Positions 47,226 to 50,540 of a DNA stretch of 64,000 nt are shown here, piece after piece. Each line of letters starts with the position of its first letter. The first letter of the stretch is position 1. Under the pieces are notes generated by a model. That model did not search any database. It was given only the letters and a program-made list of their open reading frames with translations, and had not been told where the DNA came from. The position numbers were made by a program, and so were the translations under genes. The stretch comes from Chlamydiota bacterium (GTDB taxonomy: Bacteria > Auribacterota > Tritonobacteria > UBA1439): the NCBI GenBank assembly GCA_012729785.1, contig JAAYCL010000023.1, forward strand, positions 1 to 64,000. The letters are read 5' to 3'.

Positions 47226-48923
47226 ATGGACGCACCAGGGCATCGCCGGGACCGCAGCATCCGGTCCCGCGTCGAGGAGGCGCTCGTCCGGGCCTGCCGC
47301 GCCTCCGCGCCTGGGCGCGTCCCCGCCGTCATCCTCGAGAAGCCCCGGCGGGAGGGGCACGGCGACCTGTCCACGAACCTCGCTCTCCTCGTCGCCCGGG
47401 AGACGGGGGAGAAGGGGCGCGACGTCGCGGAGAGGCTCGCCGCCGCGCTCCGGGCGGACGCCGGGCTCTGCCCCTCCGTCATCGCGAAGATCCAGATCGC
47501 GGGGGGCGGGTTCATCAACTTCTTCCTCGCCCCCGGGGCGTTCCACGCCGCCCTCGCCCTGCTCCTGAGCGATCCGGAGCGGTTCGGCGTCTCCGTCCCG
47601 TCGGACCCGAAGCGCATCCTCGTCGAGTTCGTGAGCGCGAACCCCACCGGCCCCCTCACGGTCGCGCACGGCAGGCAGGCGGCGGTAGGGGACAGCATCG
47701 CGCGCCTCCTCGGCGCGGCGGGACACCAAGTCGTGCGCGAGTACTACCTGAACGACCGCGGGAAGCAGATCCGCCTCCTCGGCCTCTCCGCGTGGCGGCG
47801 CTACCTGGAGCTGTTCGGCGACAAGGCGGAGATCCCCGAGGACGGCTACCGCGGCGACTACCTGCGCCTCGTCGCCGCGCGGGCGAGGGAGCGCGAGGGG
47901 GACCGGTGGCGCGGGGCGGCGGAGGAGGCGGCGGTCGCGTTCTTCTCCAGCTTCGCGGCGGGCGAGATCCTCGCGGAGATCCGGAACGACCTCGACCGGT
48001 TCCGCGTGCGCTTCGACCGGTGGACGAGCGAAACGGAGTTCGGCGCCACGGGGAAGATCGAGGAGTGCCTCGATCTCCTCCGCCGGAACGGGTTCGTCCG
48101 GGAGCGGGACGGGGCGGTCTGGTTCGAGAGCACGAGGCTGGGCGACGACAAGGACCGCGTGCTCGTCAAGGGCGACGGGTCGCGCACCTACTTCACCCCC
48201 GATATCGCCTACCACCGCGACAAGTTCGAGCGCGGTTTCGACCGCGTCATCGACCTTTGGGGTCCCGATCACCACGGCTACATCCCCCGGATGAAGGCCG
48301 CGGTCAGGGCGCTCGGCTACCCAGAGGACCGGTTCACCCCGCGCATCGTCCAGCTCACGACCCTTTTCCGCGGGAAGGAGAAGCTGTCGATGTCCACGCG
48401 CGCGGGCGAGTTCGTGACGCTGCGGGAGGTCGTCGACGAGGTGGGCGTGGACGCCGCCCGGTACTTCTTCGCCCGGATGCGCACCGAAAGCCACCTCAAC
48501 TTCGACCTCGCCCTCGCCGCGGAGCGCTCCAACGACAACCCGGTCTACTACGTCCAGTACGTCCACGCGCGCATCTGCAGCATCTTCAAGCGGCTCCCGG
48601 AGAAGCTGCCGGGGTTCGTGGTGCCGCCGTGGGGCGAGGCGCCGCTCGACCGGCTCGTCCAGCGCGAGGAGCTCGACCTGATCGGCGCGCTCTCGGAGTT
48701 CCCGCACATGGTGCGGAAGGCCGCGGACTCCCTCGAGCCGAACCTGCTCTGCAACTACCTCGAGGCGCTCGCCGCCGGTTTCCACCGCTGCTACGCCGCG
48801 CACACGGTCATCTCGAACGACGCCGCCCTGACCGCCGCGCGGCTGGCCCTCGCCGAGGGGGTGCGCGCCGTCGTCCGGAGCGGCCTCGACCTCCTGGGGG
48901 TCTCGGCCCCGAGGGAGATGTAG
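47226..48923 (+). CDS. argS: Arginyl-tRNA synthetase
   Basis: Class I aminoacyl-tRNA synthetase of 565 residues. N-terminal Arg-tRNA D-loop domain, then SANPTGPLTVAHGRQAAVGD with the HIGH-equivalent HGRQ, YYLNDRGKQI, YFTPDIAYHRDKF, GPDHHGYIPRMKA, and a KMSKS-like KLSMSTRAGEF. The C-terminal anticodon-binding domain is DALR type with RSNDNPVYYVQYVHARICSI. All motifs intact. ATG preceded by GGAAGGGCGG. Confidence 0.96.
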   Translation: MDAPGHRRDRSIRSRVEEALVRACRASAPGRVPAVILEKPRREGHGDLSTNLALLVARETGEKGRDVAERLAAALRADAGLCPSVIAKIQIAGGGFINFFLAPGAFHAALALLLSDPERFGVSVPSDPKRILVEFVSANPTGPLTVAHGRQAAVGDSIARLLGAAGHQVVREYYLNDRGKQIRLLGLSAWRRYLELFGDKAEIPEDGYRGDYLRLVAARAREREGDRWRGAAEEAAVAFFSSFAAGEILAEIRNDLDRFRVRFDRWTSETEFGATGKIEECLDLLRRNGFVRERDGAVWFESTRLGDDKDRVLVKGDGSRTYFTPDIAYHRDKFERGFDRVIDLWGPDHHGYIPRMKAAVRALGYPEDRFTPRIVQLTTLFRGKEKLSMSTRAGEFVTLREVVDEVGVDAARYFFARMRTESHLNFDLALAAERSNDNPVYYVQYVHARICSIFKRLPEKLPGFVVPPWGEAPLDRLVQREELDLIGALSEFPHMVRKAADSLEPNLLCNYLEALAAGFHRCYAAHTVISNDAALTAARLALAEGVRAVVRSGLDLLGVSAPREM

Positions 48924-48964: not shown

Positions 48965-50305
48965 ATGATCGGATGCACCATCGGGAGGCTGTTCCAGGTC
49001 ACCGTCGCCGGGGGGTCGTACCAGGAGGGGCTCGCCGCCGTCGTGCAGGGCCTCCCCCCCGGGATGCCGCTGAGCGAGGAGGAGATCTACGCCGACCTGC
49101 TGCTGCGCAAGCCGGGCGCGGACGAGCTCTCCAGCCCGCGCAAGGAGCCGGACCTGCCCATCATCCTGACCGGCCTCAACGCCGCCGACACCGTGGAGGG
49201 GGCGGGGAACCGGAACCGAACGAACGGGACGCCGCTGACGATCCTCATCCCGAACCTGGACCGCCACTTCGTCCATATCAAGCAGTACCAGGACACCAAC
49301 CGCACGCCGCGCCCCGGGCACGCCTCCTGGGCCTCGTTTCTCAAGTACGGTCCCGACGACGACGCCGTCGGCGCCGGCTTCTTCAGCGGGCGCCACACCG
49401 CCCCGGTCGTCGCCGCGGGGTCGGTCGCCAGGAAGGTCCTCGCCCGCTGCGGGATCCGCGTCTTCGCCTACGTCCGCGAGATGGCGGGGGTGCGCTGCGG
49501 CGACATGGACCACGAGAAGGCGTTCGCCTCCGTGGAGGCGTACAAGCGGATGCGGCGCGACACCGACCCGTTCCAGCGGGCGGTGTACGCGCGCGGGCGC
49601 GTCACGATGGAGATGCGCTTCCTCGAGAAGGCGCGCGTCTTCGCCGAGATCGAGAAGGAGATCGACAAAATACGGGCCGGCGCGCCCCGGCTCGCCCCCG
49701 GGGAGGTGCGGGAGCGGTACGGGGTGCACCACGTCGTGAACTGCCCGGACCCGGATGCCGCCGCCGGGATGCTCGAGGCCGCCACCCGGGTGTCGGCCGC
49801 CGGCGACTCCTCGGGCGGCGTGGTGGAGCTCGTCGCGCTCGGCGTCCCCGCGGGGCTCGGCGAACCGGTCTTCTGCAAGCTCGACGCGGCGCTCGGCGGG
49901 ATGCTCGGCATCGGGGCGGTCAAGGGGGTGGAGGTCGGCGCGGGCTTCGCCGTGAAGGATATGACCGGCTCGGTGTGCAACGACCAGATGCGGGCGGAGA
50001 ACGGGCGCGTGATCTTCCTCTCCAACAACGCCGGCGGGATCACCGGCGGTCTGGCGACCGGCCAGCCGGTCGTCGCGCGCATCGCCGTCAAGCCCACGCC
50101 CACCATCGACCGGCCGCAGAAGACGATCGACAAATACACGAAGAGGAATACCGAGCTGGCGGCCATCACGCGGCGCGACCCGACGATCGTGGCGCGCATC
50201 TGGCCGGTCGCGGAGTCGTACGCCGCCCTGGCGCTGCTCGACCAGCTGATGATCCATTTCGGCTACCAGACGCTCAGGGAGCGCGCGGCGGGAACAAACC
50301 CTTGA
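48965..50305 (+). CDS. aroC: Divergent chorismate synthase homologue
   Basis: A 446-residue protein with the chorismate synthase fold across its length: GRLFQVTVAGGSY at 7-19, GLPPGMPLSEEEI, RKPGADELSSPRKEPD, HASWASFLKYG, SGRHTAPVVAAG, GDSSGGVVELVALGVPAGLGEP, KLDAALGGMLGIGAVKGVEVGAGF, NNAGGITGG and a KPTPTI motif. In ordinary AroC the first motif is GESH with an essential histidine (His17 in fungal enzymes); here residue 19 is Tyr. The RHDP motif is RRDP. His119, aligned with the second catalytic histidine, is kept. It is about 60-80 residues longer than usual because of an insertion near 200-260. It may be a paralogue with altered chemistry rather than the housekeeping enzyme. ATG after AGGGAGA. 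Confidence 0.8.
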   Translation: MIGCTIGRLFQVTVAGGSYQEGLAAVVQGLPPGMPLSEEEIYADLLLRKPGADELSSPRKEPDLPIILTGLNAADTVEGAGNRNRTNGTPLTILIPNLDRHFVHIKQYQDTNRTPRPGHASWASFLKYGPDDDAVGAGFFSGRHTAPVVAAGSVARKVLARCGIRVFAYVREMAGVRCGDMDHEKAFASVEAYKRMRRDTDPFQRAVYARGRVTMEMRFLEKARVFAEIEKEIDKIRAGAPRLAPGEVRERYGVHHVVNCPDPDAAAGMLEAATRVSAAGDSSGGVVELVALGVPAGLGEPVFCKLDAALGGMLGIGAVKGVEVGAGFAVKDMTGSVCNDQMRAENGRVIFLSNNAGGITGGLATGQPVVARIAVKPTPTIDRPQKTIDKYTKRNTELAAITRRDPTIVARIWPVAESYAALALLDQLMIHFGYQTLRERAAGTNP

Positions 50306-50366: not shown

Positions 50367-50540
50367 ATGGCTCACAAGATCATCGAGGTGTGCGTGTCCT
50401 GCGGCGCATGCGAGGCCGAGTGCCCCGTACAGGCGATCAGCCAGGGCGAGACGACCTACCTGATCGATCCCGCCAAGTGCACCGACTGCGGGGCGTGCGT
50501 CGAGGTCTGCCCCGTGCAGGCCATCGTGAAACCCGAGTGA
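50367..50540 (+). CDS. 2[4Fe-4S] ferredoxin
   Basis: A 57-residue low-potential electron carrier of clostridial type. Two cluster motifs: CVSCGACEAECP and CTDCGACVEVCP, each giving three cysteines of one cluster and one of the other, separated by a short linker (ISQGETTYLIDPAK). Start ATG has GGACAGGAGGAGAG. Own promoter. Neighbours give no clear partner; radical SAM, fumarase or dehydratase enzymes in the window may need such a donor. Confidence 0.95.
   Translation: MAHKIIEVCVSCGACEAECPVQAISQGETTYLIDPAKCTDCGACVEVCPVQAIVKPE

What the first reader, a model, noticed from the sequence alone, without database searches (positions are those of the whole stretch)
48965..50305. Chorismate synthase-like protein lacking the GESH histidine
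Whole-length similarity to AroC, but GESH reads GGSY (Tyr19) and RHDP reads RRDP. The first histidine is essential in studied enzymes. An insertion of about 60 residues near 200-260 adds further difference. The adjacent ferredoxin could supply reducing power to a flavin enzyme. Possibly a paralogue with different chemistry, or a lineage-specific AroC.
Basis: partly seen in the sequence, partly recalled or inferred. Interest (0 to 1): 0.6.

Follow-up and report, generated by a model that had tools for sequence, protein, structure and literature searches.

The report
Chorismate synthase with histidine replaced
This gene is almost certainly the bacterium's only chorismate synthase (the last shared step in making aromatic amino acids), but it belongs to a large, overlooked branch in which one of the enzyme's two 'invariant' catalytic histidines is a tyrosine, so it naturally tests how essential that histidine is.

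Summary
In detail: window 48965-50305 (+) encodes a 446-aa full-length AroC homologue with GGSY for GESH and RRDP for RHDP, plus a helical insert at about 183-252. The 'different chemistry' reading is not supported. It is the only AroC in the genome, which also has an archaeal-type DHQ synthase, AroA, AroE, TrpE/PabB and prephenate dehydratase, so chorismate is needed. The GGSY form is one clade (100/100), found mostly in Planctomycetota and scattered candidate phyla; it follows aroA directly in 37 of 72 loci. Across 120 genomes of one class it is almost mutually exclusive with canonical AroC (22 GGSY only, 91 canonical only, 5 both, 2 neither). Close relatives carry a second Tyr form (GESY) inside aroA-aroC-aroE; in this genome aroC is missing exactly there, and the GGSY gene sits between argS and a ferredoxin, a junction that is aroC-free in relatives. 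This is gene displacement, and the ferredoxin is incidental. All other catalytic residues are kept (His106, Asp367, Ser16, Ser127 equivalents). Both Tyr forms share twelve signature residues, including Tyr19, an inserted His104 and Arg404, which may replace His17 in protonating the leaving phosphate (inferred). A new variant of a known enzyme.

The parts
48965..50305 (+). aroC, GGSY-type chorismate synthase, 446 aa
   Evidence: PF01264 313 bits and TIGR00033 314.5 bits, cut-off 212.2; AF2 pLDDT 92.2, all PDB matches with E<=0.001 are chorismate synthases
49010..49021 (+). GGSY motif (residues 16-19), equivalent to GESH; Tyr19 at 49019-49021
   Evidence: Y in 89 of 89 Tyr-type rows against H in 35 of 35 others
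49274..49276 (+). His104, in a 3-residue insertion (VHIKQY), invariant in both Tyr subtypes and absent from His-type enzymes
49310..49324 (+). RPGHA motif (residues 116-120) with His119 (equivalent of N. crassa His106 / S. pneumoniae His110), retained
49511..49720 (+). helical insert, residues about 183-252, specific to the GGSY subtype
   Evidence: alignment; secondary structure and pLDDT 92-98
50171..50182 (+). RRDP (residues 403-406): Arg404 for His, catalytic Asp405 retained
47226..48923 (+). argS, upstream neighbour; ancestral neighbour of the ferredoxin, not functionally linked
   Evidence: argS-ferredoxin adjacent without aroC in G002-G005
50367..50540 (+). 2[4Fe-4S]-type ferredoxin, 57 aa; downstream neighbour, incidental
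   Evidence: sequence and empty-site comparison; absent near all 80 GGSY loci

Best explanation
The gene encodes the cell's only chorismate synthase: an FMN-dependent enzyme that turns EPSP into chorismate by anti-1,4-elimination of phosphate. It belongs to one old clade in which the phosphate-side histidine (N. crassa His17) became tyrosine and the surrounding pocket was rebuilt. In this genome an acquired or retained GGSY copy between argS and a ferredoxin gene displaced the operon copy (GESY form) that relatives carry between aroA and aroE. Likely mechanism (inferred, not shown): His119 still protonates flavin N1 and Asp405 still serves as the base relay to N5, while protonation or stabilisation of the leaving phosphate passes to Tyr19 with the clade-specific Arg404 and perhaps the inserted His104. 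Confidence is about 0.9 that it is a working chorismate synthase and about 0.35-0.4 for these particular replacement residues.
For: Only AroC in a 96.6% complete genome, and sole AroC in 13 of 14 other GGSY genomes including three single-contig chromosomes. Of 120 genomes of one class, 22 GGSY only, 91 canonical only, 5 both, 2 neither; Fisher p 3e-17 (types by match length). aroA directly upstream in 37 of 72 loci and in G059-G062. EPSP synthase, archaeal-type DHQ synthase, AroE, chorismate-binding enzyme and prephenate dehydratase present. aroC missing exactly between aroA and aroE in G000 and G003 while present there in four relatives; empty argS-ferredoxin site in relatives. Retained S18, R48, R116, H119, S141, R143, K376, D405. 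One Tyr clade, 100/99. Confident chorismate synthase fold. Purifying selection, dN 0.15 and dS 0.54 against G003.
Against: No biochemical test exists. GGSY also changes Glu17 to Gly, Gly20 to Gln and the GHAD Asp to Ser, all invariant or nearly so in the His-type enzymes sampled. Some genomes (G022, G068, five) carry both forms, so a secondary role there is possible. Residue roles rest on conservation; no coordinates or ligand model were available to measure distances.
Confidence: 0.9

Rival explanations
1. A paralogue that binds reduced FMN and EPSP or a related enolpyruvyl sugar acid but carries out a different elimination.
For: Loss of an otherwise invariant histidine, further changes in GESHG and GHAD motifs, a ~60-aa insert, and co-existence with a canonical AroC in G022, G068 and five class genomes.
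Against: Sole AroC in most genomes that have it, near mutual exclusivity with canonical AroC, aroA-aroC operons, and chorismate-consuming enzymes in the same genomes.
Confidence: 0.05
2. An inactive or decaying AroC, with chorismate made by an unknown enzyme or aromatic amino acids imported.
For: One proposed catalytic histidine is missing.
Against: Tyr19 and every other catalytic position are fixed in about 80 loci over several phyla; purifying selection; placement behind aroA.
Confidence: 0.02
3. It is the housekeeping chorismate synthase, but the His-to-Tyr change is catalytically near neutral (binding only), with no substitute proton donor. This competes only with the residue-level part of the best explanation.
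For: Changing the other invariant histidine (His106 to Ala) in the fungal enzyme costs only about 20-fold (PMC3509576); phosphate could leave stabilised by the conserved arginines.
Against: Tyr19 is never anything else in the clade and changes together with His104, Gln107, Thr402, Arg404 and Thr407, which suggests a rebuilt site.
Confidence: 0.4

Closest known systems
Canonical chorismate synthase AroC (TIGR00033 / PF01264; S. pneumoniae 1QXO, 1UM0, C. lusitaniae 7RCA)
   Same: Whole-length homology, same predicted fold (TMt 0.80-0.87), retained His106, Asp367, Ser16 and Ser127 equivalents and conserved arginines, aroA linkage.
   Different: His17 is Tyr; GESHG is GGSYQ; GHAD is GHAS; RHDPC is RRDPT; inserted His104; ~60-aa helical insert.
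GESY-type AroC of the same bacterial family (G001, G002, G004, G005, also f16)
   Same: Sister subtype in one Tyr clade (100/99), with Tyr19, His104, Arg404 and Thr407; 43-50% identical.
   Different: Normal length (about 370 aa), keeps Glu17 and Gly20; lies in the aroA-aroC-aroE operon.
Probable AroK-AroC fusion proteins (G022, G036, G038, G039, G068)
   Same: Their AroC domain is the nearest His-type group to the Tyr clade (95/94).
   Different: Canonical GESH or GDSH and RHDP or similar; an N-terminal shikimate kinase is apparent by eye in G068 (L133).

Membership tests
Chorismate synthase (AroC, TIGR00033/PF01264) | Score above curated family cut-offs over full length | tested here: met
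   TIGR00033 314.5 bits, cut-off 212.2; PF01264 positions 1-327 of 327. Below the narrower NF003793 cut-off (313.1 against 321).
Chorismate synthase (AroC, TIGR00033/PF01264) | Chorismate synthase fold | tested here: met
   AF2 pLDDT 92.2, pTM 0.92; all 28 PDB matches with E<=0.001 are chorismate synthases
Chorismate synthase (AroC, TIGR00033/PF01264) | Both active-site histidines (His17 and His106, N. crassa) | tested here: not met
   His106 equivalent H119 kept; His17 equivalent is Tyr19, fixed in the clade. This feature defines the studied enzymes; the genomic evidence indicates a variant that does the same job, so it is filed as a variant rather than a typical member.
Chorismate synthase (AroC, TIGR00033/PF01264) | Catalytic aspartate (Asp367) and serines (Ser16, Ser127) | tested here: met
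   D405, S18, S141 invariant in all 124 rows; the aspartate's numbering from PMC3509576, the serines' from memory
Chorismate synthase (AroC, TIGR00033/PF01264) | Genomic role: sole AroC in a genome with EPSP synthase and chorismate users | tested here: met
Chorismate synthase (AroC, TIGR00033/PF01264) | EPSP to chorismate activity with reduced FMN | not testable with these tools
   needs an assay or complementation

The most novel reading that the evidence does not exclude
A whole natural clade of chorismate synthases has moved the phosphate-side proton donor from His17 to a rebuilt Tyr19/His104/Arg404 site, giving a second solution to the leaving-group chemistry of this enzyme.
Probability: 0.4. 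Interest if true: 0.65.

Novelty: new variant of a known kind. Interest (0 to 1): 0.45.

Why it matters
His17 and His106 have been described as the two invariant active-site histidines of chorismate synthase (title of Kitzing et al. 2004, as cited in PMC3509576). A large natural clade without one of them bears directly on how the enzyme gets rid of phosphate, an unsettled part of the mechanism. The enzyme is also a drug target, and motif-based annotation or inhibitor design that assumes the histidine would miss these forms. The gene history is a clean case of displacement inside one bacterial family, with both the vacated operon site and the unoccupied insertion site visible.

Tried and rejected
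Second aroC in the genome: none. Ferredoxin as a dedicated electron donor: rejected by the empty-site comparison and by absence from other GGSY loci. RRDP as a loss of an essential residue: rejected, because that position is His, Ser, Ala or Phe in His-type enzymes. Sequencing or assembly error: rejected by 79 independent loci. Missing upstream pathway: canonical DHQ synthase PF01761 is absent but the archaeal-type PF01959 enzyme is present. Literature on natural His17 variants or on a His17 mutant rate: nothing found in the open library; Kitzing et al. 2004 is not held. Distances in the predicted model could not be measured because coordinates are not returned.

Full report
OBSERVATION. Window 48965-50305 (+) encodes a 446-aa protein starting MIGCTIGRLFQVTVAGGSYQ. 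It matches PF01264 along the whole model at 313 bits and TIGR00033 aroC at 314.5 bits, cut-off 212.2. Its relatives among solved structures are all chorismate synthases.

IS TYR19 REAL AND FIXED? Yes. A scan of one genome per GTDB species gave 361 relatives, of which the best 80 were kept. Reading them, the motif is GGSYQ in 78 and GASYQ in 1; the one remaining record gave no clean motif. RRD[PA] is found in 79, and the RPGHA histidine in all 80 (an 81st reading is a canonical AroC in the same locus as one of them). Fifty-five of the 80 are Planctomycetota; the rest are Lentisphaerota, Omnitrophota, Fibrobacterota, Armatimonadota and others, many from metagenome bins.

A SECOND TYR FORM. Same-genus and same-family relatives (G001, G002, G004, G005) and family f16 carry a normal-length AroC with GESY and RRDA. 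In a maximum-likelihood tree of 85 sequences, GGSY is one clade (100/100), GESY is one clade (100/98), and together they form one clade (100/99). The nearest His-type group is the AroC domain of probable AroK-AroC fusions, 95/94. The tree's bootstrap had not fully settled and some His-type branches are long, but the split between His and Tyr types was recovered in all 200 bootstrap trees checked. So the change from His to Tyr most simply happened once.

WHAT IS KEPT AND WHAT CHANGED. Across 124 aligned sequences, Ser18, Arg48, Arg116, His119, Ser141, Arg143, Lys376 and Asp405 are invariant in every class. By alignment His119 corresponds to N. crassa His106 and Asp405 to N. crassa Asp367; changing these in the fungal enzyme costs about 20-fold and 300-600-fold (PMC3509576). 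Twelve positions mark the Tyr class, among them Tyr19, an inserted His104, Gln107, Thr402, Arg404 and Thr407, which is Cys in all 35 His-type rows. The GHAD aspartate is Glu in GESY and Ser in GGSY. The His of RHDP varies in His-type enzymes and so is not a catalytic loss.

IS IT THE HOUSEKEEPING ENZYME? Several lines agree. (a) It is the only AroC in the genome, and the only one in 13 of 14 other genomes with the GGSY form, three of them single-contig chromosomes. (b) In 120 genomes of the class of one of these, searched with a 90% completeness floor, 22 have only the long form, 91 only a normal-length form, 5 both and 2 none; if independent, about 22 would have both and 19 neither; Fisher p 3e-17. 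Types there were judged by match length, and genomes are related, so the p-value overstates the independent evidence. (c) EPSP synthase (aroA) is directly upstream on the same strand in 37 of 72 loci with enough sequence. (d) The genome has two EPSP-synthase-family proteins, one of them AroA next to aroE, an archaeal-type DHQ synthase, a chorismate-binding enzyme and prephenate dehydratase.

GENE HISTORY. Relatives G001, G002, G004 and G005 have aroA-aroC(GESY)-aroE. In G000 (L132) and G003 (L136) aroA and aroE are neighbours, 33-50 bp apart, with the flanking genes in the same order and no aroC between. In the window, the GGSY aroC lies between argS and a small ferredoxin; in G002, G003, G004 and G005 argS is followed by the same ferredoxin and TPR gene with no aroC. 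G003 carries its GGSY gene elsewhere. Hence one Tyr form has displaced the other, which implies equivalent function, and the ferredoxin is an accident of the insertion site. Whether the GGSY gene arrived by transfer or the ancestor had both and lost one cannot be settled here.

STRUCTURE. AlphaFold2 with 53 sequences gives pLDDT 92.2 and pTM 0.92; the insert is confidently helical. Foldseek against the PDB finds chorismate synthases for all 28 matches with E<=0.001 (target-normalised TM 0.77-0.91), then nothing significant.

MECHANISM. Shown: conservation, fold, genomic role. Inferred: FMN binds as usual, His119 protonates flavin N1, Asp405 relays the proton from N5, and the job attributed to His17 (near the EPSP phosphate, assisting protonation of the leaving group; PMC7144000) is taken by Tyr19 with Arg404 and perhaps His104. 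I could not measure distances, so the alternative that the position is only a binding residue remains about as likely.

VERDICT. A genuine, clade-wide active-site variant of a familiar enzyme, doing the familiar job.

Noticed in passing
L133 13693-15309 (G068); also G022, G036, G038, G039: Canonical AroC in these genomes lies in a long frame (538-659 aa); in G068 it starts with a shikimate-kinase-like sequence, suggesting an AroK-AroC fusion. It is the nearest His-type group to the Tyr clade.
   Followed up: partly
G000 C22:4757-7420: The genome lacks canonical DHQ synthase (PF01761) and instead has the archaeal-type DHQ synthase (PF01959) next to prephenate dehydratase; G001, G003 and G059 likewise lack PF01761 and have PF01959.
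   Followed up: partly
G169 C121:21804-24228: A canonical AroC (585-aa frame) and a long GGSY-type AroC lie in tandem 170 bp apart on the same strand, perhaps an intermediate stage of displacement.
   Followed up: no
G019 (98% complete), G015, G018: Three relatives of the same phylum, each over 90% complete, show no AroC of any kind.
   Followed up: no
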